Program-made: the position numbers and the translations under genes
Part shown: positions 13,450 to 62,369 of the stretch, in pieces
Layout: each line of letters starts with the position of its first letter
Position numbering within the stretch: position 1 is the first letter of the stretch
NCBI GenBank assembly: GCA_902728285.1
Contig: CACVBU010000865.1
Location: 3,045,204 to 3,109,203 of the forward strand
Source: Clytia hemisphaerica
Taxonomy: Eukaryota; Cnidaria; Hydrozoa; Leptothecata; Clytiidae
Direction: 5' to 3'
DNA length: 64,000 bases
Notes under the pieces: model-generated
What the model was told of the DNA's origin: nothing
Database searches by the model: none
The model's input: the letters and a program-made list of their open reading frames with translations, nothing else

Positions 13450-15130
13450 AAGATTTAGTTCCTAAACTCAAAAATTTTCCAACATGATTCTTTTTGAAAG
13501 TAAATTTTTTGCATTTCTTTTTTCCAAAAAGTTCACATTCAACACAAATTGACAATAGGGGCAGAATCTTTACGGTATTTTTGCAGAATATCATTCTAAT
13601 TGTGTTTCCTGAAACAAGAGGGGTGGGAAAGATCTGCTTACAAAAATTAAATCGTCTCAGTTATTAGAGGCAGTGTTTAAGTACGTTTGCAGTATCTATT
13701 TTTCTTTCAAAAACGTGTTTTCAAAAGTTGCGCTTACAAAAATTGAATCGTCTCTGTTATCGGAGGCAGTGTTCAAGTACGTTTGCAGCATCTATTTAAT
13801 TATTGCTTTAAAAAAGTGACTCCTTAGAATGATTTATTAAAATGACTCAGCCCACTTTTATGTAATATTCCTTATTGCAAGACAATGATAAAAATCATTT
13901 TTAAACTAACAGACTCATGATTTACTTCCTAAACTATAAAATTTTCCAACATGTTTTTTTTCAAAGTCAATTTTTTGCATTTCTTTTTTCAAAAAAGTTC
14001 ACATTCAACACAAATTGACAATGGGGGCAGAATCTTTTTCGTTATTTTTGCAGAATATCATTCTAATTGTGTTTTCTAAGACAAGGGGGGTGGGAAAGAT
14101 CTGCTTACAAAAATTAAATCGTCTCAGTTATTAGAGGCAGTGTTTAAGTACGTTTGCAGTATCTATTTTTCTTTCAAAAACTTGTTTTCAAAAGTTGCGC
14201 TTACAAAAATTGAATCGTCTCTGTTATCGGAGGCAGTGTTCAAGTACGTTTGCAGCATCTATTTAATTATTGCTTTAAAAAGTGACTCCTTAGAATGATT
14301 TATTAAAAATAACTCAGCCCACTGTTATGTAATATACACTATTGCAAGATAATGATAAAACAAAGTCAATTTTTTGCATTTCTTTTTTCCAAAAAGTTCA
14401 CATTCAACACAAATTGACAATGGGGGCAGAATCTTTTTCGTTATTTTTGCAGAATATCATTCTAATTGTGTTTTCTAAGACAAGGGGGGTGGGAAAGATC
14501 TGCTTACAAAAATTAAATCGTCTCAGTTATTAGAGGCAGTGTTTAAGTACGTTTGCAGTATCTATTTTTCTTTCAAAAACTTGTTTTCAAAAGTTGCGCT
14601 TACAAAAATTGAATCGTCTCTGTTATCGGAGGCAGTGTTCAAGTACGTTTGCAGCATCTATTTAATTATTGCTTTAAAAAGTGACTCCTTAGAATATGAT
14701 TTATTAAAAATAACTCAGCCCACTGTTATGTAATATACACTATTGCAAGATAATGATAAAACAAAGTCAATTTTTTGCATTTCTTTTTTCCAAAAAGTTC
14801 ACATTCAACACAAATTGACAATGGGGGCAGAATCTTTTTCGTTATTTTTGCAGAATATCATTCTAATTGTGTTTTCTAAGACAAGGGGGGTGGGAAAGAT
14901 CTGCTTACAAAAATTAAATCGTCTCAGTTATTAGAGGCAGTGTTTAAGTACGTTTGCAGTATCTATTTTTCTTTCAAAAACTTGTTTTCAAAAGTTGCGC
15001 TTACAAAAATTGAATTGTCTCTGTTATCGGAGGCAGTGTTCAAGTACGTTTGCAGCATCTATTTAATTATTGCTTTAAAAAGTGACTCCTTAGAATGATT
15101 TATTAAAAATAATTCAGCCCACTTTTATGT
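13450..15130. repeat. Tandem array: four copies of a ~400-466-bp unit
   Basis: TTTTTTGCAT marks the same point in each copy at 13505, 13971, 14370 and 14771, giving periods of 466, 399 and 401 bp. The last three copies differ at only a few positions. The first copy is longer because it carries an extra ~65-80-bp segment (CTAAACT...TTTTCCAACATG). Each unit also holds an internal duplication: GCTTACAAAAATTRAATCGT, then GAGGCAGTGTTYAAGTACGT, occurs twice about 100 bp apart. A diverged half-unit follows at about 15160-15240. Identical 63-aa open frames in two copies are a by-product of the repeat and not genes. Confidence 0.9.
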
Positions 15131-15415
15131 AATATTCATATTCAAAAAATTGGTTTCAGGAATTTTGTTTTACAAAAATAAAATTTTCTCAATCAACTGA
15201 GTCAAGAGTTTAAAGTATTTTTACAGGCTATGTTTTATTTTATGTCACCTTAAAAAGGCCTGTTGACTTAAATAACATCTCCACTGCACTGTTGTTGAAG
15301 ACAAAGTTTACAGTGTACATTTTAAAAATCAAAATTATTTCTGTTCCCCAAAAACTTTTCGTATTTCAGGTTATTTATTTTTCTTATAAAATTAATTTTT
15401 TTTCTTTAGATAAAA

Positions 15416-18400
15416 ATGGATACTACTTCAATAGAAAATTGGTTTCAGAATTTTGTGATAGTTCGAAATGATAAAGAATCAGTTCCACTGTTTGTTTTGG
15501 TTAAAAGTTTCAATGAATCCAATGTTGACAAGGCAATGGAGTATAATGAAAATGACTTTTTAAATTTTTGAAGGAATTTTTGCTTAGGAAAAATATACCA
15601 ATCAATTATACAAAGCGCTCTGTTAGAGGAAAAAAACGAATTTCAATAACAGGAATAGGGTTAAAACAATCAATTAAAGTTTCAGTCATTACTTCTCATG
15701 CTGATTCACCTGTATTCAATGTAAACCGAAATGAGGAATCTTTTTATGAGAGAACTGCTGGAGATCAAGATATTGTGCCTTTTTTGGTTGAGGATTCTAT
15801 TATTGACAGTTCTCACAGTATGTCTGAGTCTGGAGTATAAAAAATACTGTAAAGCAAAATAATGTCAAGAGGTCAAGTCCAACTCTCAATTTACATCCTT
15901 GTGTTACGTTATGGTCCAGCCAACCATGAATCTGACATGAATCATTCTTGCCTAATGTGTTCTGAAATTAAAGACGGTGACATCACTGATACCCTTTCTT
16001 GCTCAAATCTTGATCCCATTAATTCAACTTCGTGTAATAATCACCTATTGTGTCCAGGTGTTGAATCTGGTAATGTTGTAAAGTGTGGTTCTGGGATTGA
16101 TAATTCTTTTGGAAAGTCTTTCATTGACTCCAATCTTGATTATTCTACAAACATTCCTTCTGACAATGTCAATGATTTGAAATCTTTTCCTAATGAATCT
16201 GATGGAAGTTTTGATTGGGATGATAATAGCGAGCATTCACTCATTTTATCTGATATTTCCAAAAATGTTGAATCAAATTGTGATCGATCTAAATGTAAAC
16301 CTGACTCAGTTGAGATTGTTGATCATCCTTCACATGACTCAAAGATCTTTGATAAAGATAAGTCAAAAAAAAGTTCTAATTTTCATTATTTCTCTAAAGG
16401 GAACCTCAATTCTGAAAGAGAAAAGTCACCAAGAATTGTTTATGTAGAAAAACAATTTCCATTTAGAAATCAATCAAAAGAATCTTCCCACTATGATAAT
16501 TTAACCTTTTCCAGATTCTACCAAAACTTTAAAACCATAACTCCATCCCAGTTACAGTCCTGTAATTTTGACAATTTTGAGGATTTTTTAAATACAAATT
16601 TTCCAACACAGGAGTCCAAGAGTGAAGTTCTGAGGGATGCAATTCTCAAAGCAAAGTCTACCACAAATATTCTCAAGACTAGAATGAATGCTTTTCTTTG
16701 TGGCTCATTTCCTCCCATATGTACAGGGAATGTAGCAAGTAATGCGTTGGATGACTTAGAAGCCTCATTGTTGATTCCACAATTTACTGCACAAAGTTAC
16801 TCACCAAATTTGATTTTTAAATGCCAGGTTTGTGAGGTTTATAGGAAATTTTTGAAACAGTGTGGAAGGTTGTGTAAGATGGGTCCAGGTATTTTTGAAG
16901 GCTGTAAGCAGCTCTACCAACACTCTCTTACAGATCACCACAAAAGCGCAATTGACTTTTTGAAAAGGCATTCTAGCACTTTACCAAATCCGTCCGAAAA
17001 AATTAAACGAAAAGAGCATGTTTCCACTTATTTCAAAGATGAGTCCACGGGAAAAGGAAAGAATGTGTCTTGCATGTTTCTCTGGGATCTTGATATTGTC
17101 AAGGAATTTAGACATGATCAAAACATAAGAAGAAAAAATCCTAAAAGCATTTTTGCAGATAGAAAAGAATGGAAGAAATGTGAAAGCGAATTAGGTCATG
17201 AAAGATGTAAAGAGTATGATGAATGGAAGAAAAAGCATCAGAGAGATTTTAAGGCTCTTTGTGAAGAGAGTAAGTTTAGCTCCTCTAGGTCTGTGTTCAT
17301 CCCTGCGAACGAGCAGAAAATATTAGTTAGTGGGCAAACAGTCATCCTTTCTGGTGGAATTAAGTCACTGGACCCTCCTTGCCTTGGTAGCGCATTTACT
17401 ACTGGTCCTCATCCATTTACATCTGTAAATTGTCACAAGCAAAGAAAAGCGCTTAAAAACCTGCAGGCTTTTCGTAACAAAAAAGCATCACTTCCTAAGA
17501 CAGAGTCTCGACTTGGCAAAAAAGGAATGCGTGCAGACTATGCATCTAAGGGTGAAAAAGAACAACTCTTTCTTGAAACAGTTGAAAAAAATGAGGCTCT
17601 TGTCAAGTGCAATAAGGCATACAAAAAACTGGTTATGAGCAAAACAAATTGGGAAAAGTCGTTGTTGGAAAGTTGTCAGACAGACGAAGTGAGGAAACTT
17701 GTTCTTGATTTAGTTATGCTCATGGAAAGTAAAGATACCACCCTAGAAATCAAGAAAGACATCATAAAAAATTTATTGGGAAAGTTGAGATCTGGTGTTA
17801 ATCACAAATTTTTGCCCATCATCAAAGATGTGGCGGCATACTATCATAACTCTCTAGGTCCAGATAAATATAGCTTGCTTCAAAATCTCTTTGGGCTTCC
17901 AGGAAAGACTTGCGCAAAGCAGCATGGTCTACAAACTAAACTTCAGCTTGGGATGAATGAAGAGGTTTTTGAGAGAGGTGTAACCTTGTACAATGGTTAC
18001 CCTGTGATTGATGCCACTGACGAGGCTAGAACTTTAAGGATGTTGTCTGGAGTTGTAGGTAAAGAAGGAAATGTTGAAATTATTGGTCAATGTTGGGAAC
18101 CTGATTTGGATGATTGGGAAGGATCGAGGAAGTTTCTTGGTGAAGTTGTTAAGGATAATAGTGTACCAGATGAATTTAATGCCTTAAAGAAAGTCGCTGA
18201 TAAGATCATAGCAAAAAATCAACTTGCCAAAGACACTGCTATTCACAACTTGGTATCAGCTTCTGGAATTAAAACAAAGCCTCTCATTTACTTGATATGG
18301 CCTACCCCAAATAAAGGTTATCGATCTTTTCACCTCATGAAAATATGGGACCTTGTCAGGTCTAATTGTTTTCTTTTACCATCAGGAGAATTGAGGAGTG

Positions 18401-19824
18401 ACCCAATCAACCTAGTTGGGCATGCCTCTGACTCAGCTGGATTCCAATTAGCAGCTGCAGTGGCGTTAATGACACCTCAGCCTCAAGCATTTAAAGTTGG
18501 GGTGAAATATTTGACTCTTGATGCTGGAGACAGTCAGTTTGCTTCCCCATACCTAGGTCCATTGCCATCTATTGCATACTTAGATTATGACCACAATCTT
18601 CGTCTTTTTCTAAAGTGTCTGAAGTATGAGACCCTTGATCTTGATTTCTTTCCATCTAAAACTAGCACTCACATTGCTTCAATTAATCATCTACGCGAAT
18701 TAAAGGATATTTTGGATAGTAGTGGTAATTCTCATCTTTGTTCATTTTCCAATAACGATCTGCTTTTTGCTCGCTTTTTAGACCAGAATGTTGATGCAGC
18801 TCTAAAAATCTTTACTTCCAGAGTTGCACAACTTCTCCATGAACATGTTCCGGGCTCTGCAGGCACATCCCTGTACATTGAAGGTGTTGTTGCATTGTTT
18901 AAACCTTTCCTCAATCCAAATTGTAACCCAATTGCCAGTCAGGAAAGTATAAGCGAAGGGATTACTGTTTTCCGAATTTGGAAGCAAATTTTGAAGAAGA
19001 AGAAAAAAAGGTTGAATGCAGTAAAAAATGCAGCAAAAGATCCCTCTAAACGTGGAAAGTTCATCACTTATGGATGTGCTAAGACATCAGAAATTCTATT
19101 TGCAGCTGGTACTTGCCATATGTTGGCCATGTTTGCACACTTTAAAGAACTCGGTACAGCTATGCTACCTCTCTCCAATTGCGGTACGAAAACAACAGAA
19201 AGAATCATAAGTGAGATTCAGGGTAAAACAAATCAAATACAGTCTTTGGATGCACAGCCAACACTTGCCGAAATTATGCAAAAAATAAGTAAAGTGCAAA
19301 CAAATCACACTGCTGAGGATAATATCCTTGCAGCAGGTGGTAAGAAACTTAGTACTACCAATCGAAGAAGGTTGTCCCAGAAGCTTAAGGTTACTGAAAA
19401 TTCAGATTATGTTTATCCAGCTTCTTTTGACGATTTCAAGCTGCAACAGCAAAGTGCTTTTAAAAGTGGTGTTGAGAAAGGTATCTCTCTATTTCGAAAA
19501 TATTGCTCGGAAGGAATTGAATTCTTGGAAAAAAATGGTGGTCTTGGTTTTTTAAAATCTTTCAAAAATGGTGTGCCCGAAAAGAATAAATTTGAAGGTT
19601 GTGTAAGCGAAGAATATGCATTAGAAAAGTTGAATTTGAAATCTGCTGAACTCCTTTCAAAAGGTGCTGATGTAGAAGAAAATTTAATTACTAATTACTT
19701 GAACCCAGAAGATCAGACCACTGACATTAACAAGGAAAATGAAAAAGATGACATCAAGGAACTGATCTCTGAAGAAGTTCTTACAGATCCAAGCAGATCT
19801 AGAATCAGGAGATGTGAAAGATGA
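15416..19824 (+). CDS. Large unclassified protein, probably transposon-borne; N-terminal frameshifts
   Basis: The main open frame runs from ATG 15862 to 19824 (1,320 aa) without introns. Coding sense also extends upstream: MDTTSIENWFQNFV from ATG 15416, after a TTTCTTTAG acceptor, stops near 15571, then continues in another frame (KEFLLRKNIP, to 15840). So the true start is probably 15416, with two or more frameshifts. Visible regions: a Ser/Asp/Asn-rich N-terminal third, a Cys cluster CQVCEVYRKFLKQCGRLC (about residues 324-341), a Lys-rich charged middle, then a conserved-looking part with LIYLIWPTPNKGYRSFHLMK, LVGHASDSAGF and PSIAYLDYDHNLRLFLK (about residues 810-920). Near the C-terminus are TKTTERIISEIQGK and SLDAQPTLAEI. 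The last part has a general likeness to transposase C-termini. I recall similar proteins repeated in cnidarian genomes but cannot place it in a named superfamily. The C-terminus may also be frameshifted: another frame ends in an acidic tail at the TAA inside the TIR at 19843. Confidence 0.6.
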
Positions 19825-19842: not shown

Positions 19843-19870
19843 ACTCGGGTAAATTAATGCGTGTCCAAAA
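19843..19870 (+). repeat. Left 28-bp terminal inverted repeat
   Basis: It begins ACTCGGGTAAATTAATGCGT and ends GTCCAAAA. It follows the coding frame of the 1,320-aa protein within 20 bases, and its GGGTAA supplies a stop codon in one frame of that gene. Confidence 0.85.
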
Positions 19871-20955
19871 TTTCCCGTAATTTTCCGGAGGCACTTCCAC
19901 CCCGTTAAACATATAACATTATACATCAAAAGAAGCACATTTTGGAATAGAATTTGAAAATCACTGTTACTTAAATTTATTTATCAAATATCACCAAATT
20001 ATATTACTTTTTCTAATTTTCCGGGGGTTTGCATCGATACAAATTTCGACGATTTATTTAAGTATAAGGCCAAAACATTTAAGTAACAGTGCTTTCCAAA
20101 TGCGTTACGTTGGTACAAATTCATCCAGAAACTTTTTTCCCCAAAAATCGGGTGGTTAATGGGTCCGCCTCGCGATTTGCGGTTTATGACGTAATGTTTC
20201 TATATTTGGATGCCGAAACGCGCTTTCCCGTACTTTTACACTTACCCCCGTATTTCAAGACTACTTCGTCTGCCGTGTGATTAAGATGCGATGAAAGGCG
20301 CCAATACGAGAAAATTTGTGTTTTGAGATTGAAATGGAAGGTGATTGAAATGTCCAAACTGGCTGACTGAGCTCCAGCTATCATAAAGTTCTCAACAGAG
20401 ATGTATTGGTTCAGATATTTGATAAAAGTGTTTGTGATATTGTGATTGTTGTAAGAATTTACTTTAAAACAGATAGATAAACCCAGACACCACCACCCAA
20501 AGGCTAAATAAAATAAGAAGGGGGGGTGGGGGCGGTGGGGAGGAACGAGGGGAGGGTCAGATCAGACTAAATATATCAACCCTAGAGAGACTATTTTTGA
20601 CCATTTAATTTTTGATAACCTTTACAAAAAATACGCAAAGCGAGGTAACGTTAACGAGAGATTCAAAAACTGTTTTTGCCTGTGTTTCTTTTTTTATAAT
20701 AGAGGATGTTTTTTTAAGCTTTTCTTAAGGCCCGGGAGAGTTATTCTTATAATTATTGATATATCCACTGAAACACTGTTTGCGTCTTGCTGCGATGACG
20801 TAACTCGCGCAGCAATTAACTCACTGTCTATTGGATGACCATTTTGAGCGTTTTGGCGGCGTTACCGCCCATTCAATTAATCCAATTATGTAATAGACAG
20901 TTCTAATTGGGCATATTTTGACGAACAATTTATTTTAGATGAAGATATAGATAAC
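19871..20955. other. Gene-free leader before gene A
   Basis: Subterminal sequence with TTTTCCGGAGGC and TTTTCCGGGGG motifs (about 19880 and 20018), a G-rich run at 20519-20555, and a GC-richer patch at about 20790-20870 (ACTCGCGCAGC, GGCGGCGTTACCGCC) that could hold a promoter. A TTTATTTTAG acceptor ends at 20938, eighteen bases before the ATG at 20956, so a non-coding first exon is likely further up. Confidence 0.35.
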
Positions 20956-23900
20956 ATGGCTACTGTTTTTCATTGCAAATATCTGAAAGCAACTCTCTTC
21001 AGAATCAGCCAAAAATACCATGCCCAAGAAAAACTAAAAAAGTACAATGAATTCTCATCGCAGTTTGCGCATATCACCATGGACTATCAAAAATTTATCA
21101 CATATTACAATCGATTTGTATTAGATACTAATAAAAAGAAACTACAAAAAGGAGTAAGAGAAGCATGGATTGATATGTTCTCTTTGGAGAAATGGAATGC
21201 TTTGGATGATGGCCATAAACGTTTACACACTGTCCGTGAATGTCAGCCATGTAAATTTATCATCTTTGATCCTTCGCCCAGACTTCCTGTGCCTTCAATT
21301 TCTTTGGATTCAACATGCTCAACACCATCTCAGTCATTTCATTCTTCACCTTCAACACCTCATCCCACACCTTCCTCAAATCTACAAATGCCAAAGACGC
21401 CAACAACACCATTTTCGTCATTAAAGATTGATATCCCCATTCATTCTACTCCTTCTGTAAAACATCAAAAACAAGCTGCGTCGACTGTTTTGACCAAACT
21501 GAATGAAGAATTCCATTGTTTATATGGGAAAAAATTTACTGATGTTGTTTGTAAAGTTCCAGAGGCAAAACTGCAAGCAAAACCAACAGAGGCTGAGAGG
21601 AAAAAAAGGGATAGAAAGATCCGAAGAGATGTTAGAGATGAGCTTCAGAATGTTTTATATTCGCGAGATTCTCAAGTTCTCTTTGGAACACGTCAAACAG
21701 CATCTCAATATGAATCTCAAAGAAAGGCAATGTTTATGGAATCTCCTGCAGATGCTAAAGCACGAACAGAGAAGCGTAATCTAGTTTTCATTTCTGTGAA
21801 CCTTGTGTTTTTCTAAGGCTAAACTAACATGTATAATTATTGGAAAAACTCCATAGTTTTAAAAATTACAACATGATTAGGAAAATAATGCAATTTTTTA
21901 ATTTTAGCGAGAGCTTATGTTAGCAAAATGACAAATTTTTCAAAATACTAAATATAACCCCAATTTTTGTCTAGAACAAAAAAAGAACCAATTCGTATTT
22001 TGAAAAATTTGCCAATATTGCTTCCATTAAGGTATGACATATAATATGACTTGTGTATTATAAGCAATAAAATAAATAGTAAACTTTCTATTCTAATTCC
22101 TAGGTAAACTAGACGAAGAATCAGGAAAATGCAAGAAAAAGAGAAGCTCAAAAAACCTTGATCAACTTGACTTTGATAAAGCTGGCTTGTTGAATCATGT
22201 CAACAGTTTACCAAAAGGATCAAAGGTTTGAAACAGAGGCTTGATAATTTAAATTGAGTACATTTCTTCATGTGAATGTCTGATATCACAATTAGCTTTA
22301 ATTAATCAACATTTCCATTCAGGAGCTTGTACAAATACCCAAAATGATGTTACTAGACCGGCTGTATGAAATCAAGTATCAAATAATGCATTTAATTAAT
22401 TAAAATGAATACTGTTTGTGGTTTCTTCCTAAAAGGATTTTCATTTAAAATCAATTTAGTCTTAGAAGTAACTGCTTCACGTTTTATGTGTTTATACTCA
22501 ATAAACAACAGAAACCTGTCTTGAAATTCAACATATTCTTCAGGTTATAATGTTACCGGCCACCGATTTCACTACCAGTGAGTGAAACAGCCCTGAAGCG
22601 GAAAGGGTAGTGGGGTTAAATAGTTATAACACCTGGCTATTCCACTAAAGGTAACAACCACAATAGTTCATCATATTGTTAAAATATACTTTTGATATGA
22701 TGACTATTGTTTAATAAACATCAATAGTTAGATGGACAAAATTTTGAGAGCTTCTATTATAGCTCTTTTATAGTCCACTTTCTAACAGTTTAAACTATTT
22801 CCAATGAATTTCAATGTTTCAGTGAATTTTTTTTGAAACTTTCATGTTTTCTTTTTCCTTGTAAATGACACAAACGTGAATTTTATTGACTGAAATATAC
22901 AGTGATTCCTGATTTGTTAGAGTTTGTTATTTTATTAGTTTTATAGCTTTGCTTATCAACAGTTGGAAAACCTTTTGGTATCCCAGAGAGTCCTCAGGCT
23001 AACATGGTTGTCAGAGAGTTTTTAGAGGCAGAGAAAGTCGATATTAGTTTATTTAAAAACAACTATATAAATAAAGACAGAGTGAGAAGGTGTAAATTGA
23101 AAAAGCAAGGTGAGTTTTTTGATATACCATTTTCAATCAGGATTCAATTTAGACAATTGCCCAGAATTATTGACTTATATAGTGTTTATTACAAAATTTA
23201 GAAAAATAATTAAGTGGTTGGACCTTTTTTATAGTTTTTGTGGATAGAAAAGTTGGTGTCTCTATTAATAACAATAATAACTTACCCCCCTAAGTTTTCA
23301 ATACTGATGAGAATTTCATGGGTAAAAAATGTTATGTTTTGTCTTGTTTTTATAGGTGTGTCTCTGCCGATGCCAAGACCATATAAGTATTTAAAGGAAG
23401 AACTTCTGAAGAAAATCAACAGGGGAGAAATTCTAATCGGTGAATTGATTGAACCAAAATGTTACATCAGGATCAAGTTTAAAAAGGGGAAAATTATTAA
23501 GGAAAAGGTTGAAATTCGTGGACGCAAACTTCCACTGGAGGAAATTCGAAGGAGAATGTTTGAGGAACACAAATCTATGGGTAAATAGTTAACCCCTCTC
23601 TTTAGTCAGGTCAACATACATATTCTTGTTAAGCGCACTTACAATGTGTAGAGGCTGCTGATTCATTTTTTGTCACGAAATAGCCTTAAGCTTTATGATT
23701 GACTTTAAGCATTTTCGGTTGAGATTGAAGGTAAAAAATAATTATTTTCCATAGCTATATATACGGAATTTACAACTTCGTTATTGTTCAGGCATCTTGA
23801 GACCAATGGCTGAATATGATCGTTTTCTTCTAACGTGGGGTGACCACACTTCGATGTTGAGTTCCGGTTATTTCCTGTATACCGTCAAGGTCATATATTC

Positions 23901-25261
23901 AGATGATATTTTTTACACTGACAAGGAGATGCGTGAACTGTTTGGAAAGTCCATTAATGTGCAAAGTAAAGTGGAACAACTCGAAATTTTCATCGTTGGC
24001 CAATGCAAAGAAAAGTTGACTTATGTTAAGTCACGTTTGGATGGTATGGAGGAAATGGCTGAGCCTTTCAAAGTCGGAGATGCTTTAGTGAAAGACGTTA
24101 TGAGGTTTTTTATTGGTAAAGAAATTTAATAGGTCTTATAATAGTATCAAAAAAAGCTGCGGCTGGAATGATAACATCTGAATTTATGTCGTATTTGATG
24201 ACTATGCTGTAAACATTCCAGCCGCGGCTTTCTTATACTAAGGTCTTGATAATTCCTCTGAACTTCTCTACTCTTGGATACCTGATCCACTGTGCCTATA
24301 TAATGAAATCTGGTTTTCTCTAGCCTTGTCCATCTAGAATTTATTTTAAACATTAGAGGTTTTATCAAACGTTATTGTCATTCAATATTTCGACTTTGTC
24401 TAATGGTTGTAAATTATTATATTTAAGGTGACCATCCCGAACTCCAATTTGAATCTGGAAACTCGCAAGGTGGCAATTATCCGTGTGTGTGTGGCTGTCA
24501 TTCGGGCAAGTTCGGAAACACCGCGTATGCTTTCAAAAACAACTTTGTAAAATCCCTTGATGAAAGAAGAACAAAAGTAAGTTTTTTTCCCGTCATGCTG
24601 TGTAGTATCTTTGTGCCCTCCCCCCCCCACTGTAGAAGAAATAATAACAAACAATTAACAGTCAGTAAATCAAAGTCCATTTGTTTGTTTAACAATAACA
24701 TTCTCTATTTTGTAGCTCATAGAAGGTCCTGCTGGTAGGCAAAAAAATGCTATCAATCCATATGGGAAGTTGAAAGTGAAAGAATTGGAAAAAGAAATTT
24801 TCGCGCGGGATCTTGTCAAAAAAGTCAAAGGTATGAAAGATAAGTTTAATTTTTGAAGCCTAGAAATTTTGACACTTGGTTCTTGGATTCATAGTCTTTT
24901 TTGCTACCCCTTGACAATAAATCGTCCATACCCTCTCCTTCGTAAATTTTTTCTGAGAGCCCATTTTAACACGGAAGACTTCAATATTATCTTTTTTTTT
25001 TTACTATAGGTAAATGGTTGAAAGATGAGCTAGATGATGTGCTGAAAATGGATTTGGCTGGTTTGTGCCGTATCCCTGCTGTTTGCTTCCTCAATCCATC
25101 GCTTTCCCTAGAACGTATCAATCTCAAACACTATGAAATTTCTCTAATCGAGCCTTAGCACGATATTAAGGGACACATAAAGAACATGTGAGAACTTCTA
25201 CCAAAGCATCTCAGTAAAGATATGGAAATCTTTTTTCAAAATGACCTTATATCCATTCTAG
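20956..25261 (+). pseudogene. Gene A: multi-exon cnidarian-type gene of unknown function, late stops
   Basis: Exons supported by splice sites and reading phase: 20956-about 21775, 22104-22225, 22963-23109, 23356-23580, 23792-24115, 24428-24576, 24716-24830 and 25020-25261. From 22963 on all phases agree; the junction 22225/22963 is one nucleotide out of phase, so an exon is missing or lost there. The first exon has a Ser/Thr/Pro-rich linker (about residues 110-170). Later exons read WGDHTSMLSSGYFLYT, GDHPELQFESGNSQGG with a CVCGC cysteine group, and a SAP-like Lys/Leu-rich helix region followed by RIPAVCFLNPSL. In the last exon TAG (25156) and TGA (about 25183) interrupt a frame that keeps its sense (HDIKGHIKNM after the first). 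A further remnant, EKDTYRGSDYRLSALF, follows an acceptor near 25449. I recall this domain order from repeated genes of corals and anemones. Function unknown. Confidence 0.6.
24153..24231. repeat. Foldback hairpin in an intron of gene A
   Basis: AAAGCTGCGGCTGGAATG (24153-24170) pairs with CATTCCAGCCGCGGCTTT (24214-24231) over 18 bp with one mismatch, leaving a loop of 43 bases. It lies between the exons ending at 24115 and starting at 24428. It could be a tiny MITE or a structured intron element. Confidence 0.7.
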
Positions 25262-25597
25262 GTAAAAATAATTTTTTATTTACTTTTCAACTTCCTCTTC
25301 GTGCTTCAATGCTCGAGAATATCATAAATATTCGAATGATTTGCTTTTTTTGTAAAATGATTTTGTTATTGATTTTGGAATTGCTAAGTTCCGTTTTTCT
25401 GAGTTTAAATAATGTCTAATTTAAAACGACTTTTTGCACTTCCATCTAGGTGAAAAAGACACATATCGAGGCAGTGACTACAGACTGTCCGCTCTCTTCA
25501 TGTGCTCTTGGACATTTTCTTCCCCGTGCGTTTAAAATGGACAGCTTGAATGGTTCTCCATAACCTAGCACATGAAAGTTGATATGATAAGCCCCTC

Positions 25598-26003
25598 GGA
25601 TTCCGATTTTAAGCGCAAGTTAAGTCAACTCGGGCTTAGCACTTCGAATTCCGAAGATAAGCCCATGCTCACTCTCCTCAATTCTTTACTGTCACCCAAT
25701 AATTGGTCATTACTCCCAATGAAAGGTGCGAACTAGGTCAAATTCGTTTTTCCAAAATTAAATGAAGATAAGCCCCTCGGATTCCCATTTTAAGCGCAAG
25801 TTAAGTTTTCGGGCGTTGAGTTTTCGGGTTTTTCTTATTTGGAACATTTTAATATTTTAATATTTTGAATCAATGTATTTAAGGGGGATGGGATTCCGAT
25901 TTTAAGCGCAAGAGTATGCTTTTCGAGAAATTGCGTTTGTTTAGAGCATGATTTTTTGAATCAATGTATTTAAGGGGGATGGGATTCCGATTTTAAGCGC
26001 AAG
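25598..26003. repeat. Repeats of GGATTCCGATTTTAAGCGCA
   Basis: GGATTCCGATTTTAAGCGCA-type units occur at 25598, about 25779 (one base changed), 25890 and 25981. The last two lie in a 91-bp direct duplication that also includes AATCAATGTATTTAAGGGGG. They lie just downstream of the broken end of gene A. Confidence 0.75.
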
Positions 26004-26099
26004 AGCAGATTTTCTGGGATATTGAGCGATGAGTTATGCATAAAAAAACAAACGCATATGCTCATTCAGGGAGAAAGACGGGTGTACTTTTTGGTAACT

Positions 26100-26510
26100 A
26101 ATAGCCGGGGGGGGTTGAAAAAATCTCAAACTTAATAAGCGCGGCTGGTTTGGAATAAGGTCCTGGGTGGGTAAAAAGATGAGAGAGCATGTTTCAATTT
26201 TTGTTTCATGTTTCTTTCAAAGAAAGATATGCTGTTCTCTTTTTACAACCCTGTCTCAGTGCTTTAAATCAGCAAGATTTGCTGCTATCGATGCGCTTTT
26301 AAAAGTGGAGGCATTTAAGCGCAAAGCAAATCCCTTATCATCTCGAAAGTTAGTTCTTTTTTTTCAAAAAGTAAAAATTTGTTGTGTTTACTACGCTCAA
26401 GTGAACCACAATATGCCTCATTTATCCAGAAAAGTCGATCTCCCAAACAGTTATTCGAAGAAAATTCTTATCCATCCCCCTTGCAACTTCGAATAACCGG
26501 GATTCTACTG
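26100..26510. mobile_element. pogo/Tigger-like element, right end recognisable
   Basis: Read on the minus strand, the block starts at 26510 with CAGTAGAATCCCGGTTATTC, a typical pogo/Tigger terminus, next to TATA outside. The inner sequence has no transposase. The left end is not clear; a G-run stretch at about 26105 resembles the inside of the MITE at 8336-8638. The limits given are approximate. Confidence 0.4.
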
Positions 26511-29053
26511 TATATCAAAGACGTTGACTTCATGATAAGCCTATTGACATTAGGATTAGAGATGAACGCGAAGAGAAATTGTAAGTATAGCAGAGAATTT
26601 ATTACATACTTAGCAAACTTACTTAAAAATAACAATACAATATTTAAAACTTATTAAAAACTCATAATGAGAGTGTCCTTCGTACTGATGATGTTGCGTC
26701 GGGATGAAGATGAATGTTGGTGTATGAAAGTTGGTTGGTGAAGCAACATGGTTTCTAAAAATCAAAATTAGACTAAAAATAGATTTTCCCGTACATGTTT
26801 TTTTTTTATACCCTTGGTCAGGCTCGTGTATGCTTAAGTTCTCAAAGCATCCAGACATAGTTTATGCTTATTATATGTTTAAGAATTATGTTTATGATTC
26901 ACCCTGAGGCAAGTTTTTTAATGAAATTTTGTAAAAAATTTGTTCAGATTTTGGGAGCAGTGGAATGTAGCTAGCCGTGGAATGTGTTATTTTTTACTTG
27001 ACCTCTACCAAACCAGATAAAAATGAAACAAAAACAGATAAAAATGACCACTTGAAAAAAATTTTAGGCTCATGTATAGGCATCATATATGCTCATGTTA
27101 TGCTTAGGAATTCTGCAAATCTGAGCCTTAATATGCTTATAAGCGTTATGCTTATAAAAAAACAACATGTATGTTTATAAACAAGAGTATATCAATCAAA
27201 TGCAATGATAAATGTGCGAAGCTATTTGCCTAGATTTAGTTTATTTAGAGCATTATTCAAATTGTACTTCAAACTTACCATTTATACATCAAACGTCAAT
27301 TGTAAGAGAGATCTTTCTACAGTTTCTCGAGATACTCTGTTCGTAACTTCGATCATTTTTATATTAACCTGTGAGAAAAAGTAAATGTAAAACATAACTT
27401 ATGCATGCCATGAACAGCACTTTCTCAAATTAATTTTTTTACTGATTCGATCAAAATCTCGAGAACTGATTTATGAAAAGTTTATCTTAATACACGTTTT
27501 TCTTATAAGAATATCTTCTATAAGAATATCAGGGTGAAAGTTATGGCCAAATCGTAAGAATGTATCCTAAGAATACCCTCCAGGGTGAATTTCAAAGAAT
27601 TTGATAAGAATACAGTTATTTGTATTTTGTTAACAGAAATAACTGCTTCCTTTGTTAGAGATAAATTGAAGCTTTGAGGAAGAAATGTAATTTTAACCCA
27701 AATGTTCACACAAAAGTCCAAAACTATCAAATCTAAAGTACACTATTCTTATAAAAAAAAGCGTGTATTAAATTGCAACCATCACGTTTTTCAAAGAAAC
27801 CTAAAATTACGCAATTTTTTAAAATACTTACATCAGGTACAAGGCAAATTGCAATCACGTTTGCAAGTTCCGATTCTGGAAAAAATTCTTTAACAACACG
27901 TTGCAAATTCCCATCGTTCAATATGAGTTGCGCGACGAACGTGACCGCATGCTGCCGCTGGGAACAGAATAATTTTTTTATCAAATCTGCCCACTTTTGT
28001 CAAAAAGTAGGCCAAATTTAAACCGGGGGTACCAAAGGTTAGAGGTTTTATTTTAATATAACAACCTGTACTAATTATTTTGACATTTAGCCCGAAAAAG
28101 ATATTTTACTTACCTAACCTGTGGCGCCCCCAGTTTAAAATGTAACCTACTTCTTTTTGTTAAAAGTGGACAGAAAAGATGAATCATACCAGTATAAATA
28201 TTCTTGATGAAACATTTCATATTTATACTGATTAACATGACATTTATGACATTTATCAAGGGGTGAAAGTTGGGTTATGAATTAGTGCAATTATGAGAAT
28301 TAAAATTAATTCAAGAAAACTGTTCTTAATTTGCAATTAAAGGATGGTAAAAAAAAAACTTACTGATTCTTTTAACATCATACAAGTAAAAAATTTGTTT
28401 ACATCTAAGGGTAGGGAACCAATAGAAACGGATCGTCTTGTTTTCATATTACCTTGGCAAATATCCTCGATAAAGCTCTGAATTAAAAAATATATGTAAG
28501 CAATAGAATCTATCTCCTTTTTAATGTTCATGTTTCATCTGGTTCATCTGTAATTGAAACCCAAACTTAAGACTCTTTTTCTCTTTTAAATTAAATAACT
28601 CATACATCCATTTTTTTATTAAATAAGAAAAACATTTATTGATGCTTCCAATAAAAAACACACTCCTTGTCACACTTAGCATGAAATTGAAAAGGAAGTC
28701 AAGATACCCTTGCAATATGAGCTGATTTTTCGGTATTTCGTTCAAATCTTTTGACGTCAAGAATGTCATTTTTGATTCTAAAATAAAATTTAAAAAACTT
28801 AGATTCCTTGAATTTCAAATATAATTCTGAGCAGAAATTCAAAGCTCCCAAGCAAAATATCTTTTTCTCTAGATTGATTTTTAGTTTTCAGAATTTTGCA
28901 TGAAAACTAGAAATGTTCACCCTGTATTTATCCCGAAACAAAGCTGCTCTAGTTTGACGTCACTTTTTCTAACATCGGCAAAGTGAAAAGATTCCCTTGT
29001 TGATAACTGTGAATTACGGGATTTACAAAATACGGTGTAAGCCGATTTTCTTC
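26511..29053. other. No gene seen between the convergent genes A and B
   Basis: AT-rich spacer. Minus-strand frames at 27733-27984 and 28521-28769 have neither motifs nor good splice context. One of them could be a last exon of gene B, whose exon ending at 29054 has a possible GGTACTT donor after GWLKER, but I see no support. Confidence 0.35.
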
Positions 29054-32000
29054 TCAGAATATAAAAATGAAAAATAGCTGGCTATTTATTATATTAGCTA
29101 AATTAACTGATAAGTACCTTTCTTTTAACCATCCAATTTTCCCACACCCACATTCATCCTCGTCCCCGACACATGTGATGTGGTATCTCAAGCCACATTG
29201 ACCACAAGTCATCTGGTTTGATGATGGCGAGGAAATACAAAATGGTTTTTCTCCGCAAACATCTATAGAAAAATCCTCAGTTTTCACAAGAGAACAGAAC
29301 TCCTCGTTGATGACACCAACACGAAGAGGGGTCCTATCTGCCAAATATGGTCCTAACTTGATCCAATCATTTTCTCGATGCCATTCAATAACAAGGTCAC
29401 ATTCGATAGCAATGCCAATCAGTTTACTGATTTCTAAAGGCAATTAAAAGAAATTTATTTACTCTCAATAAGTGCAATTAACTTGGCTTTATAAGATTTA
29501 GGTTTCGATTCACCTATCAGGTTGAATCAATTTTAACTACATAAAACAGAACTACAAAAAGCAAGACTGGGGCGTTGAAACAGGTTGAAAAGCAAAAATC
29601 TTATTTTATGACAAATAAGTAAAAGTACCGGTCATTAACGAAGGATCAGCCAGGACAGCAGCAGCAAATTTATCTGGCTCCTCCTCTATGGGTGGGATCA
29701 TATCATCTCCCCTGTGGTTCATCTTAAAGATAATCAAAAACGATATCTCATTAATTATGATACAGAAATATAAGAAAAGCATATCGTGTCCTAGACTATC
29801 AACCCTTTGAAAAATCACATGTAATATCCCAGGGTCTTAAAAGAAAAGGTTAATGCCAGAGTGTCCCAGAAACAAGTGTCAATTTTACTCAGTTAAAACA
29901 TAATTCTATAAAATTTGACTAAGAGCTGCTAATCATCTTATTTCATAAATTCAATAATAGCAAAAACTTACAGTCAATAATTGATGATAGTTTTTGACAC
30001 AAGATGCCAGTCCAAAACGTTCAAAAAAGTCGTCATATTTTTTACTTTGAAGAACAGAGAATGACAAGCATTGCGTGATCCTCTCAAAGCACACAGGCTG
30101 ACTTTCCACATTTTCCACATTCAGCACTTCTCTATACCTGAAAATTGAACAAAAATATTCAATGAATTAGATTAGATTAGACAAAATTCGTATTAGTTGA
30201 TATTTTTGATAAAGTGATTAAAAATAAAAATTTTCAGTTTGATTTATATTGCTTGGAAAAGGCATCTACCTAGTATACCAAGTCAGTACAGCTAAGTTTC
30301 TATTTATAATGTAACTTACTTTAGTGTGACAAGAGCTTTATCAACTAGAGAAGAAGGCTCTGTCCACTTCTTCAACCAGCTTTTGACAAGTTTTGCTTCT
30401 AACAAAAACGATGCTGACCAAGCCAGTAGTTTGTCAAAGGATCTGGTATCAGGCAAATCGTATTCTGCTAAGCAATCCTAAAGTAAAAAAGGAATATTAA
30501 TTTTTTGTACATTTAAAAATCATAATAATTTTCCAAATAAAAATTTTTATTTTCCAAGTTAATCCTCTTAGTTAATAAAAGTTATTTCTTTTAATTTAAT
30601 TTCTAAAAGAAATGAAAAAAACAAACATAACCAAAACAGATACCATAAAATGAGTAATGTTGGATTTGATTGACGTTTTAATGATCTTGTCCAGTGGTTC
30701 AACACACATATTCTTTGGCTGTTTGAAAGGAATATCACTTGGCCACCAATCTGGTCTTGATTCTTTCTTCCATGAGATTCTCTGGGCCTCTGGACGACCT
30801 GGCAAAATGGTATACAAAATGAAATTGTTTCAAGTTCTTCCATCAATTTTAGAAAAGCTCTCTAGAAAAATTAGGTAGAAAAATTTCGTAGGTAAAAAAT
30901 GAGTAAAATTGTGAAATTTAGAAATAAAGGATCAAAAATCAAAGAACCACTAAACCTATTGTCTAAAAGATATTCTCACTTATCTTTGAAGTTTGAAATT
31001 GAAAACAAAAGTTATTAAAGTGTAATTATGTGTAGTTAATTCAAGAGTTAACAGAGATCACAGAAAGTACACTGACAAGCTTAAAAGAATAAAACATTTT
31101 TTTACCACAATCCCATGCAACGAGGTCACGAACTAAATCTCTCTTATCATGGGCGTCAAATTTTTCCCAATCTCCAGGAACAGCAAAGTCTCCATTTTCA
31201 TCAATAAAGGAAGATCGTTTTCTTTTACCTGTGCAGGAAAAACAAAACCTAAATACAATAATTTATCAAAAAGTCTTGAAAATGTTTAAAACACTGGTTC
31301 ATTAAAAAAAGACATAATTTTCATTTCAATAACTGTTGAACAGAGACTAAGGGATACCTCCAGCCAAAAGTAACACACTTGAAAATCTAAATGTTTTATA
31401 AAAATCTAAAAAGAGTTTTACCTATATCTAAATTTTCAGAACAGCCAATCACTTTCAGCTCAGGCGTCAAATCTTTCTTTGCCTCATTCAGAAATTTTGT
31501 TTGTATGGTCTTGTCCAAAATGAACTCGCCCAGGCCTTTTGTTGACCCTAAAACAATTACAGGAAAAATCTCTCATTTCAAAGACTAACTCATTTATGAC
31601 AAAATTGTGTATACAGAGGTATATAAGTCTATCCTTCCCCACACTCGTCCATTTCGGGAAAGGGAGAATCCTTCACATTATGAGAGTACAATTTAATCAC
31701 CCTGCAATATAGCATATAAAAAATCAGAGAAGGAAGCAATTATTGAATTGGAAAAACAAAAATAAAAAACTAAACAAACAAACCTGCAATATAAATTTGA
31801 CCATCTGATTTCATGGCAAGCACAGCAACTGGCATATTTGTTAAGACAGCAGTTTCTTGGATCTATAATCCACATAGGTAAAAATTTTAACTAAGTAAAA
31901 TGAAATTACAAATCTTAAAACGAGATAAAGCCAATATCACTTAAGTTATCCAAGACAGGCGGTTTGTGTAAATTTGTCTGTTAATGCACTTTGAATTGAA

Positions 32001-32425
32001 AACAGACTTCTTATGCTCTTATAATTTAAAGATTTAGCTCAGAGCTCATTAAAAGTCACCATTCATTTACAAATTGTCTATTTCTTTAGTTTCATACACA
32101 TTAACTTTTAACAAAATATCAGGCTCAAAAGATATGTGTCATTGACCTTAATAAAAATTGGGTTTATTCATTTGCAAAAACTTTTCAGTTAACTTACAAT
32201 AGAAGTCAAACTCTTTCATCTTCCGTGCATTTGGATTTTGAATGAATTTTACCTGTAATGTAGATTTATCAAAAAAATAATAACACAATAATTGTATGAG
32301 AAAAAAAAAGTATTTCGATAGAGCAAAGTATACCAGGGTATACTAAAAAATTCAATCATCTAGATTCTTACATTTTTCTTGAACTTTCCGTTTGGTCCAA
32401 CACGTTTGTTAATTTCTTTTGACAT
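29054..32425 (-). CDS. Gene B: ten-exon gene with PHD-like finger, function unknown
   Basis: Minus-strand exons, top to bottom: 32425-32372 (MSKEINKRVGPNGKFKKN), 32252-32198, 31862-31784, 31547-31422, 31228-31106, 30798-30644, 30477-30320, 30137-29972, 29722-29629 and 29433-29054. All carry AG/GT borders, and phases agree from the third exon to the end. The second exon does not join the third in phase, so the 5' part is uncertain or damaged. Landmarks: VPGDWEKFDAHDKRDLV, then ISWKKESRPDWWPSDIPF, then a C-terminal cysteine/histidine group CGQCGLRYHITCVGDEDECG like one half of a PHD zinc finger (chromatin-reader type). The end is either the stop at 29054 or an unseen further exon. It converges on gene A inside the same inverted repeats, which suggests an accessory gene of the element, but a host gene cannot be excluded. 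Confidence 0.55.
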
Positions 32426-32564
32426 TTTCTATTTTATTATTTCAGTTCTAAAAAGATAAATGGAACCAAAGTTTTTAATTATTCAAGCATAACATCCTGA
32501 TTAGGAAAAGGTCTCTAGAATGTGAATGCTGAGACTTTCTAGCTTAAACCTAGTCTGGATGTAC

Positions 32565-32622
32565 AGACCGTAAACTATTTTATCGTCTAGTTTTTAATAA
32601 TCTTCTCTCTGGTTTACGGTCT
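32565..32622. repeat. Short inverted repeat AGACCGTAAAC/GTTTACGGTCT
   Basis: AGACCGTAAAC near 32566 is complementary to GTTTACGGTCT near 32612, with about 35 bases between them. It stands directly before the tetranucleotide array at 32626, so the two may be one small element. Confidence 0.65.
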
Positions 32623-32625
32623 ATT

Positions 32626-32703
32626 CCGAACGACCGATTGACCGACCGACCGATTGACCGATTGACCAACCGACCGATTGACCGACCGATTGACCGACCG
32701 ACC
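32626..32703. repeat. Tetranucleotide microsatellite (GACC/GATT mix)
   Basis: Units of CCGA and TTGA alternate in 4-bp phase over about 78 bp (CCGATTGACCGACCGACCGA and similar). The open frame it makes on the minus strand (RSVNRSVGQS repeats) is an artefact. Confidence 0.9.
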
Positions 32704-33630
32704 AAATATATTATAGACATATTCATTAGGCCAGGGGGAAGTCCCCAAAACCATCCCCCCTGATATCCAGAAAAAATAGAAAGTGGAGTGTTCAGAGGGG
32801 AAACAATAGTCCTTCAGCTGATCACTACAGTCTATTTCATAACTAATTACTACAGCCAGCATAGAAATCATGATGTAGTAGTTTGTTATTCAATAGACTA
32901 TCGTGTTCACCCAGTTCCAGCAAGCAGCCAGTGTAAATCAATGTGGAAATTTTTTTCTTTTTCATATCAGACAAAAATCATCTTCATCTCAAACCAGCTC
33001 AAAAAATCTAGGATAGGGATTATTACTTTTCCACAAAAGAAAACACAAAGAAAACCAAAGAGGAATAGAGGGAGGAGGCTGTCAGTTTCATTTGTATTTT
33101 AGCTTCGAGAAAAAAAAAAGTAAGACAATTTTAAGAGAAATAAATACCTGAGGAATATATCTTTCATATAGAACAAAATGTATCAAAGTTAGGCTCTTTT
33201 AAATTGACACAGAACCCATTGCAATGACAATTCTACAAAAATAATATGGCAGTCCTACCTGGTCCTACCTGTTCTGACCTTCGACATCTCCTTTCTTTTC
33301 TTCTTTACTCAATGCCGGCTTCCGTGACTTTTACTGCTAAAAATAGAGTCCCGCGTCAAAAACGCGTCTAAATTAGAAAACGCGGGAGATTTTTACAAAA
33401 ACAACAACAAAAATTTGCACAGGCCGTAACTTCGCCGAGAAAATTTTACAGCCCAGATTCCCATGAACGATTGATATGAGAGGTCATCCATGTAGAACGT
33501 ACGCAAGAATTTCCCAAATATTTGACACCCCCTCCCCCCTTGTACACAGAAAACAACAGAAATGACGCCATTCAAACAAAAGGCGTACGCTTTTGCTAAC
33601 CCCCTCCCCCTTCAGCCTCACTGTGTACAT

Positions 33631-33839
33631 ACTATTTCTATTTCTATTTGGTTGAGTTGCAGGAGGCTTTAGAGGCCTATTCTTGCAACTATAGACGCTT
33701 ACTAATGAGCGTCCCGTCAGCACCTTGAACTGACTACCCAATTCCCCTCACATGGCATGGGTTGACCCGGGCGAAGGAACGTTCACTTGCCACTTCCCTG
33801 CACAGAAGCCAAGGTTGACTACCACTATACCACGGCACC
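33631..33839 (-). mobile_element. tRNA-derived SINE, full-length looking
   Basis: On the minus strand it starts at 33839 with GGTGCCGTGGTATAGTGGTA. TGGTATAGTGG fits the pol III A box (TRGYNNARNNG), and CGGGTCAACCC near 33765 fits a B box. A ~100-bp tRNA-unrelated body follows, ending in a simple-repeat tail AAATAGAAATAGAAATAGT (33631-33650), typical of SINE tails. Length is about 209 bp. I do not see a clear target duplication. It is not a tRNA gene: the acceptor stem does not close at the right distance. Confidence 0.75.
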
Positions 33840-34224
33840 TCAACACTATGATGGACGGCCATAAAAAATAAAGATTGGCAGCTGGATTTTTTCTGTGTAA
33901 CTTAATAAGTTATTTAAAAGACCAGAAAAAAATTCAAACATACATATATTTTAGATTGATAAACATCCTTAAATATGAATAAGTTATTGTTTATTACTTA
34001 ATTACTTGCATGATCATGACGAATATAAATTGTAATTATAAAATTGGTCAAACCCATAGATATCACAAACTCAGGATTAACTGACAGAGAAAATCATTTT
34101 CAGAACTAGTATAACCTTTAAGATTTTAAAAAATTTTAAAAAAGACATCTGATATTAGGACCATTTATTCACCAGTCAAGCAAAGCCAAGGAACACCCAG
34201 AAGGGATTCAGGAACACCACTTAC

Positions 34225-34238
34225 CAGCTCGCCGCCAT
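34225..34238 (-). other. Possible first exon of a minus-strand gene
   Basis: Reads AAAATGGCGGCGAGCTG and then the perfect donor GTAAGT (ATG at 34238), in a small GC-rich patch 150 bp inside the right inverted repeat. It would suit the 5' exon of gene B, but spliced to the leader acceptor upstream of 32425 the frame meets a stop after four codons. So it would be a short upstream frame, or it belongs to a transcript I cannot follow. Confidence 0.3.
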
Positions 34239-34381
34239 TTTGTTTGTCCTGTCTTACTATTTTCGGCCTTCCGGCTGCAAATCCATTCCAATAACTTGGC
34301 GGTAATTGTTTAACCAATCAGATCGCTTATCGCGTATACACGCGGGTAAGACTTGTTGAAAACCGCGGGATCCTATTTTTT

Positions 34382-34409
34382 TTTTGGACACGCATTAATT
34401 TACCCGAGT
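34382..34409 (-). repeat. Right 28-bp terminal inverted repeat
   Basis: Perfect reverse complement of 19843-19870. Just inside it are a run of T and a GC-richer stretch (ACACGCGGG, ACCGCGGGATCC). Confidence 0.85.
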
Positions 34410-40678: not shown

Positions 40679-41365
40679 CTCGGGTAACTTAATGCATGTC
40701 CCACAATTGCATTAATTTTTCGCCCCCAGTTCCAGTTCATAAACCATAACAAATTATATATTTTTGGGAGCGTAATTGGATGTACAATATCGGATTCGGT
40801 GTTACTTAATTTTTTTCCCAGTATAATTAGAGATATTTAAAGAAAACCTGCTTATGACGTCATAATTGATGACGTCTAAAAACAAAAAACTGAATATCTC
40901 AAGAAATATAAATCAAAACTTTATGAAATTTGGACCAGTGATAGAGCACATTGAGATGATGTATTTCTCAAAATTGATGACGTCAGCAGAAATTGCAGAA
41001 ATTCAAATGTTTGCAATAAAATGCTTACATTTTAATTAATCTTTAATTTAATCATCTAATTTTCTTTTAAAAAAAACATTTATCCTCCTCTTGATGAGTT
41101 CTATCATTGGTCCAAATTTTATAACGTTTCGAGCATTAGTTCTTGAGATATTCGACTTTTTTAAATTATAACGTCATAAATAATAATAATTGGGTTTTCT
41201 TAAAATAACTCTAAATATGCTGAGAAAAAAAATTAAGTAACACCAAATCCAACATTCTATATCCAAATACGCTTCAAAAATTTGTTATGGTTTAAGGGCT
41301 GGAGTTGGGGGCGAAAACGAAAAGTAGATTTTGAATAATTTGCGACATGCATTAAGTTACCCGAG
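40679..41365. mobile_element. 687-bp foldback element with CTCGGGTAA ends
   Basis: CTCGGGTAACTTAATGCATG (40679 on) is matched by CATGCATTAAGTTACCCGAG at 41346-41365. The complementarity continues imperfectly through both halves (CATAACAAA, GGTGTTACTTAATTTTTTT, TTAAGAAAACC and AATATCTCAAGAA against their complements), so the whole element folds on itself with arms of about 300 bp. No coding. Its termini share CTCGGGTAAnTTAATGCnTG with the inverted repeats at 19843 and 34409. Confidence 0.8.
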
Positions 41366-43072: not shown

Positions 43073-43482
43073 TTATTTGTTTCTTAATTGAGCTTGTTCA
43101 GACTTAAGTAAGTCAATCTCTTTTTCAAGTGTTTGTTTTCGTTCTAAACCCATTGCAATCAATGACTGAGCTTGTTGAATCTTTTCTCGTAAGATTTTAG
43201 GTTTTGATAGTTCGTGTTCGAGGTTTTGATTACCTTCAATAATGCTTTCTTCAGCTGTAAACAATCCACTTTCTTTAAATTTATTTGTCGATTTATCAAC
43301 TCAATTTTTTCTTTGATTGTTTCCATTTCTTGTTTTCGTAAATTTTCTGCCCTTGACGCTTCTTCAATCTTTCTCTTTGCAGCAAGATCACATTGATAAC
43401 GTTGTGTTGCCGATTTAACTGACGATAATAACTCTTTAGTGATGGGCACTTTCAAAACTCCACCAACAATACGAAACATAAT
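43073..43482 (-). pseudogene. 3' part of hAT-like transposase pseudogene
   Basis: Minus-strand reading RIVGGVLKVPITKELL then a long charged coiled coil (ENLRKQEMETIKEKIELI), and after a frameshift near 43260 a second coiled-coil piece (KILREKIQQAQSLIAMGLER) ending at the stop near 43073. Together with 51842-53033 it is one gene split by the BEL insertion: the duplicated bases ATAAT lie at the junction (43478-43482). Coiled-coil tails after the hAT dimerisation region are seen in related repeated genes of cnidarians as I recall them. Confidence 0.6.
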
Positions 43483-43989
43483 TGTTAAGTGGACTTCGTC
43501 CTAGGAGGTCAGTGAATTATGGACAATATCAATAGCTATGTTTATTGTATAATATCTTCTCTATGTAGTCGATAAATTAGTAACAATTCATAATCTCATA
43601 GATGAATATAATCGGTAGTAAAGTATCTCTGTAAAGTAACTCTGTAAAGTATCTCTGTAAAATATCAATGAATTCGGTTTGTAGTAAAACTCAGTGAAGT
43701 ATCAGTCAAAGTATTTACTTTGTATAATGTGACATCTCATAAGTCAGCCTTTTCCTTTACATACATGTCCTCTCTCTATTGATGTAAATCATAACTCATC
43801 CTGACGAGCAGAATGATCTCTAAAAAATCTACGAATATATAGCAAATGATATTCTCTAGGGTCATTATGTATAAAACTGCGTAACAATAGAAAAGCTACA
43901 CTTATAATTTCACGGGAATTACGTCATTCCCCAAGTGGATCAACGAAATCGACCAATTAAGAATTTATTGGGAGCTAAGTTGCGTAACA
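43483..43989 (-). repeat. BEL 3' LTR
   Basis: 507 bp. On the + strand it reads TGTTAAGTGGACTTC...GTTGCGTAACA. It contains an internal short repeat of AAAGTATCTCTGTAAAGTAA. Next to its inner edge lies the polypurine tract. Confidence 0.95.
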
Positions 43990-51062: not shown

Positions 51063-51329
51063 CCAGACGTTAATAAGAGCCAGACAGGACAGAGACTGAA
51101 ACGGTTTATCAACAGACAGGTCAAACAGAAACCAGGTCCCAGTATTCAATGAGCCACACCAGAGTTTCCCGTGCCACAAGAACACTTCTGTGTCGCCCTT
51201 CTTGATGTCCTCTCTTGAGTTCTTGACAGGAAAACGCCACAACTATAAAAGTAACCACAACCATAAATTAAAACAAACAATTTCTTCTTCTTCAAATTCT
51301 TCTTCTTTAAAATGCTTCTGATGAGTTAT

Positions 51330-62240: not shown

Positions 62241-62369
62241 GTTATTTACTTCACTTCCACATTTTCTTACTTTTCTTTGGAAACATTGAAACAAGTAGAA
62301 CAGTACTTAGTCTGTTTGTTATTATTTTAGAGACATGTGTCTTTGAGTTTGTTGGAAGCCAAAATCAAA

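What the first reader, a model, noticed from the sequence alone, without database searches (positions are those of the whole stretch)
19843..34409. A 14.6-kb interval bounded by a perfect 28-bp inverted repeat, with two convergent intron-rich genes
The 28-bp ends are exact complements, and the same end motif is used by a separate foldback element in this window, so it acts like a transposon terminus. Gene A runs in from the left end and gene B, with a PHD-like finger, runs in from the right end. Neither encodes a transposase of a superfamily I know. If the pairing is real, this is a large and perhaps undescribed class of element with spliced genes. Against it: no target duplication is visible.
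Basis: partly seen in the sequence, partly recalled or inferred. Interest (0 to 1): 0.75.

Follow-up and report, generated by a model that had tools for sequence, protein, structure and literature searches.

The report
Jellyfish transposon with RAG1-fold transposase
This stretch of a jellyfish genome is a recently mobile 15-20 kb cut-and-paste transposon whose cutting enzyme is predicted to have the same fold as RAG1, the enzyme that shuffles our antibody genes, and which carries a second, convergent gene of unknown role with a zinc finger.

Summary
The 27-bp terminus occurs 10 times exactly in the 417-Mb genome, inferred to be Clytia hemisphaerica. Four large copies have both ends: window 14.6 kb, C180 15.2, C355 19.7, C250 7.3. 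C355 holds both genes nearly complete; the others miss parts. They differ from the window by 0.8-1.0% substitutions. Related ends occur at 716 places; 32 of 33 pairs among the 100 listed are about 0.6-1.2 kb long. Of 15 short elements tested, 13 have exact 2-bp target duplications, as do 3 of the 4 large copies. The window copy has none; its flanks appear to come from different sites.
Gene A's family has no Pfam model beyond SAP and about 100 loci here. Its AlphaFold model matches RAG1 and Transib (Foldseek E 5e-8). It keeps DDE and H(4)H residues of the CACTA-Mirage-Chapaev-Transib (CMCT) clade. Its ends, CTC..GAG, fit no lineage in the passages I read. Gene B has a PHD-like finger, no kelch found, function unknown. 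Verdict: new variant of a known kind; Repbase and Dfam unchecked.

The parts
19844..34408 (.). whole transposon copy (14,565 bp)
   Evidence: homology boundaries against C180, C355, C250
19844..19870 (+). left terminal inverted repeat, CTCGGGTAAATTAATGCGTGTCCAAAA
34382..34408 (-). right terminal inverted repeat, exact complement of the left
19952..20101. subterminal inverted repeat (arms 19952-19981 and 20072-20101); a GTTACTTAAATTTA block in it also lies in the foldback element printed; possible transposase binding sites (inferred)
20956..25523 (+). gene A (DDE transposase), first part only; exons about 20956-21780, 22103-22228, 22966-23110, 23356-23580, 23793-24114, 24430-24577, 24716-24830, 25010-25272, 25446-25523; broken in this copy
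23793..24114 (+). exon with the putative first catalytic D (WGDHTSM), start of the RNase H core
24430..24577 (+). exon with the putative second catalytic D (DHPE) and the CVCGC motif
25506..25648 (.). place where about 3.7 kb present in C180 and C355 (3' exons of gene A, with H(4)H and the putative catalytic E) is missing
25586..26009 (.). imperfect direct repeats; more copies in C355 and C180
27285..32425 (-). gene B; exons 31862-31784, 31547-31422, 31228-31106, 30798-30644, 30477-30320, 30137-29972, 29722-29629, 29433-29118, 28777-28708, 28477-28360; about 27957-27823 and about 27362-27285 by protein match only (splice sites not resolved); tentative first exon 32425-32372
29118..29433 (-). 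gene B exon with the PHD-like finger, C(5)C(10)C(2)C(4)H(2)C(6)C(1)C
30644..31228 (-). gene B exons with a WWP stretch weakly similar to Nrf1
40679..41365 (.). separate foldback (non-autonomous) element with related ends

Best explanation
The interval is a copy of a large autonomous-type cut-and-paste DNA transposon of a hydrozoan. Gene A encodes a DDE transposase of RAG1/Transib architecture. It is inferred to bind the CTCGGGTAA ends and the subterminal repeats, cut the element out and join it to target DNA with a 2-bp stagger, giving 2-bp duplications. Gene B, transcribed towards gene A from the other end, is inferred to be an accessory DNA- or chromatin-binding partner, with an Nrf1-like WWP stretch and a PHD-like finger. 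Short foldback elements and a 6.3-kb copy with two left ends are non-autonomous derivatives that the same transposase could move. The window copy itself is disabled (gene A truncated and interrupted) and its two flanks appear to come from different sites. Shown: multi-copy ends, shared contents, 2-bp duplications, low divergence, predicted fold and conserved residues. Inferred: catalysis, end binding, and any role of gene B.
Confidence: 0.85

Rival explanations
1. It is an ordinary, already catalogued EnSpm/CACTA- or Chapaev-type family (for example a Repbase or Dfam entry) with unusual ends.
For: CMCT residues; 2-bp duplications are within the 2-5 bp range given for CMCT (PMC12730594).
Against: Ends are CTC..GAG, not CA..TG; no Pfam transposase match for the 10 of 13 A2 members scanned at E up to 10 or for the rest at E up to 0.1; nothing seen in the listings and passages names it. 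Repbase and Dfam were not searched.
Confidence: 0.3
2. It is a RAG-like (ProtoRAG/TransibSU) transposon: gene A is RAG1L and gene B is RAG2L.
For: RAG1 fold; two convergent genes; PHD-like finger in gene B.
Against: 2-bp, not 5-bp, duplications; no CAC ends; no kelch profile match in gene B at E up to 10; no RAG1 chain matched by the A2 profile at E up to 1.
Confidence: 0.04
3. The ends belong to a non-autonomous element and the two genes are captured host genes (transduplicated cargo).
For: Short elements share these ends; diverged gene B exons lie on seven contigs with no gene A match listed closer than about 81 kb.
Against: Parts of both genes lie between the ends in window, C180, C355 and C250; gene A has the RAG1 fold and catalytic residues and about 100 loci.
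Confidence: 0.06
4. Chance inverted repeat around two host genes.
For: No target duplication at this copy.
Against: Copies at C180, C355, C250 with both ends.
Confidence: 0.01

Closest known systems
CMCT clade of DNA transposons (EnSpm/CACTA, Mirage, Chapaev, Transib, Plavaka, ESTA, Lanisha), as defined in PMC12730594
   Same: DDE triad, H(4)H, C-rich motif after the second D, LH (a Chapaev motif in PMC4079192), predicted RAG1-like fold, 2-bp duplications within the 2-5 bp range
   Different: CTC..GAG ends instead of CA..TG; C-x-C in the window and four relatives; SAP domain in some relatives; no sequence-profile match
RAG-like transposons (ProtoRAG, TransibSU), passages of PMC7204232 and PMC4411706
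   Same: RAG1 fold; convergent second gene with a PHD-like finger
   Different: 2-bp instead of 5-bp duplications; no CAC ends; no kelch domain found in gene B
PlavakaA (fungi), passage of PMC12730594
   Same: CMCT transposase with 2-bp duplications and non-CA ends
   Different: TGT..ACA ends; fungal; relation by sequence not tested
Nuwa (two-gene Harbinger relatives), passage of PMC12730594
   Same: transposase plus a separate DNA-binding protein
   Different: different transposase superfamily and 3-bp duplications

Membership tests
CMCT clade | DDE catalytic triad | tested here: met
   first D 9 of 10, second D 11 of 11, E 12 of 13 rows with a letter; assigned by alignment and predicted fold, not by assay
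CMCT clade | H(3-4)H before the last E | tested here: met
   13 of 13 rows, HxxxxH
CMCT clade | C(2)C after the second D | tested here: inconclusive
   7 of 11 rows that cover it read CxxC; P0014, P0002, P0026, P0027 and the window read C-x-C
CMCT clade | 5'-CA..TG-3' ends (most cases) | tested here: not met
   ends are CTC..GAG
CMCT clade | 2-5 bp target duplication | tested here: met
   2 bp in 13 of 15 short elements (two of the 15 share identical flanks) and 3 of 4 large copies
CMCT clade | RAG1/Transib-like fold of the transposase | tested here: met
   model of the Hydractinia relative P0014, not of the Clytia protein
Transib / RAG-like transposons | 5-bp target duplication | tested here: not met
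   0 of 15 short elements match at 5 bp
Transib / RAG-like transposons | CAC ends | tested here: not met
RAG-like transposons | RAG2L partner with kelch and PHD | tested here: inconclusive
   only a weak PHD match, no kelch match at E up to 10; AlphaFold of gene B unusable, pLDDT 34
Chapaev | 3-4 bp duplication and CAC..GTG ends (PMC4079192 passage) | tested here: not met
ESTA | TA target duplication | tested here: not met
   duplications CC, TA, TT, GA, GT, AA, GC seen
EnSpm/CACTA, Mirage, Chapaev, RAG1 by sequence | match to their Pfam profiles | tested here: inconclusive
   no match; genome searches with PF12940, PF02992 and PF06918 did not complete

The most novel reading that the evidence does not exclude
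A superfamily-level lineage of RAG1-fold transposons, present in hydrozoans and a coral and probably wider, with its own end rule (CTC..GAG, 2-bp duplication), in which one branch acquired a convergent PHD-finger protein that works with the transposase as RAG2 works with RAG1: a second, independent RAG1/RAG2-type pairing, or a relic of a pre-kelch partner.
Probability: 0.15. Interest if true: 0.85.

Novelty: new variant of a known kind. Interest (0 to 1): 0.56.

Why it matters
It adds to cnidarians a RAG1-fold transposase family with no Pfam model for its core and about 100 loci in one genome. If the two proteins act together, it offers an independent case of the two-gene arrangement from which V(D)J recombination arose, in a jellyfish that can be grown in the laboratory (the last from recall).

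Tried and rejected
Rejected: chance repeat; RAG2 identity of gene B as unlikely (no kelch match). No sign of a viral relative: no BFVD fold match with E<=0.001. Led nowhere: IMG/VR scan for gene A (27 pattern matches, none a relative); AlphaFold of gene B alone (pLDDT 34); profile search of solved structures with A2 (best E 0.025, SAP-type chain); boundaries of two diverged gene A relatives, L070 and L071; splice sites of the last two gene B exons (one search failed there); papers on Clytia transposons. Diverged gene B exons (L066-L069, 4 of 7 such contigs) had no gene A match within their 3-kb loci. A family missing from the VIA rows is not excluded.

Full report
Check. The 27-mer is exact at 19844-19870 and 34382-34408. 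In the whole genome (417,433,876 bases, 951 contigs; inferred Clytia hemisphaerica from the name of P0001) it occurs at 10 places, the window's two included, with none for the reversed control. Pairs: window 14.6 kb, C180 15.2 kb, C355 19.7 kb, and C260 6.3 kb, which has two left-type ends. C250 has a right end and a left end with one mismatch, 7.3 kb apart. The C291 place belongs to a 662-bp foldback element. Outside the ends the flanks differ; inside, copies align mostly at 97-98% with gaps and 0.7-1.4% substitutions.

Target duplication. With up to 2 mismatches a degenerate terminus occurs 339+377 times, 0 in controls; 100 were listed, in which 33 pairs lie within 30 kb, 32 of them 0.6-1.2 kb long. 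Of 30 loci fetched I read 17; 15 held both ends of a short element. 13 of 15 have a 2-bp duplication, 0 a 3-bp one; two of the 15 share identical flanks. Of 4 large left-right copies, C180, C355 and C250 have one (TT, TG, AT on the strand read); the window has AA/TA; C260 has none. Of 172 exact 23-mers 100 were listed: 26 pairs, 23 under 1 kb, 48 places unpaired.

Window copy. Its left flank is a dispersed repeat: 7 matches cover all 401 bases, the window included. In 4 of 4 paralogs fetched (of the 6 others) the sequence runs on past the insertion point without an element, and the window's right flank is unrelated to it. That right flank has a single match, itself, in a search that skips very common words. 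So the two flanks of this copy appear to come from different sites, through recombination between copies or an adjacent deletion (inferred).

Contents. C355 holds both genes nearly complete. The window lacks gene A's 3' exons; C180 lacks the stretch that holds gene B's PHD exon and the exons just after it; C250 keeps pieces of both genes.

Gene A. No Pfam match in the composite at E up to 1 or in P0014; SAP in 6 of 13 relatives, E 3.3e-7 at best. Homologues: 13, then 30 proteins; those with a species name are Clytia, Hydractinia and Oculina. The model of P0014 with 13 sequences has mean pLDDT 68.8 and pTM 0.64. Foldseek gives RAG1 and HzTransib alone at E<=0.001; VIA puts the same proteins first. 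Residues fit the clade called CMCT in PMC12730594 (section 3.1.6 read, other passages seen); LH and H(4)H fit the Chapaev motifs of PMC4079192 (passages). The RAG1 residue numbers in my notes are recalled. A 222-aa piece finds 144 matches here, 26-97% identical, in 102-106 loci.

Gene B. Exon joins from 31862 to 29118 are consistent. P0037, a database protein named TCONS_00041697 and so probably transcript-derived (inferred), agrees with them over the part it covers (66% of the query) and extends the gene to about 27285. Similarity is weak: PHD E 0.06 for one exon but 3.3 in P0037, Nrf1 E 0.1. Near-identical pieces lie at C355, C594 (window), C180, in part C250 and C411; diverged exons on seven further contigs. 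Its role is unknown; an accessory role is my inference.

Constraint. Window against C355: gene A synonymous 7 of 425 sites, non-synonymous 3 of 1615; gene B 4 of 293 and 4 of 1111; gene B introns 8 of 2098. The first contrast favours selection on gene A; for gene B the introns are as low as the non-synonymous sites, so nothing is shown. Codons with stops were left out, gene A exon borders are approximate, and gene B was compared over 10 exons only.

Literature. Searches gave listings and none; passages were read in PMC4411706, PMC7204232, PMC12220107, PMC12730594, PMC4079192, PMC3985635, and the outline of PMC9587614. None of what I saw names this element.

Noticed in passing
window 15862-19824 (+): Intronless 1320-aa open frame of no known family (only TFIIE_beta, E 0.16), ending about 20 bp before the element; its end is part of a dispersed repeat, 12 places with the window.
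   Followed up: partly
window 43481-43780 and 51328-51627: Identical 300-bp direct repeats 7.8 kb apart around a G+C-richer stretch, probably an LTR retrotransposon.
   Followed up: no
C260:8406-14704 (L014) and C291 (L015, L016): Elements with two left-type ends in inverted orientation (6.3 kb and 662 bp), a possible route to foldback elements.
   Followed up: partly
L066-L069: Diverged gene-B-like PHD exons without gene A in the 3-kb locus; L067 also has an integrase-like open frame (naming from memory).
   Followed up: no
L070, L071: Diverged gene A relatives with open frames of 731 and 668 codons and 70% DNA identity over 1.3 kb; active or domesticated is open.
   Followed up: partly
window 13429-15160 and 61838-62278: Repeats of about 400-470 bp and of 21 bp spacing.
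   Followed up: no
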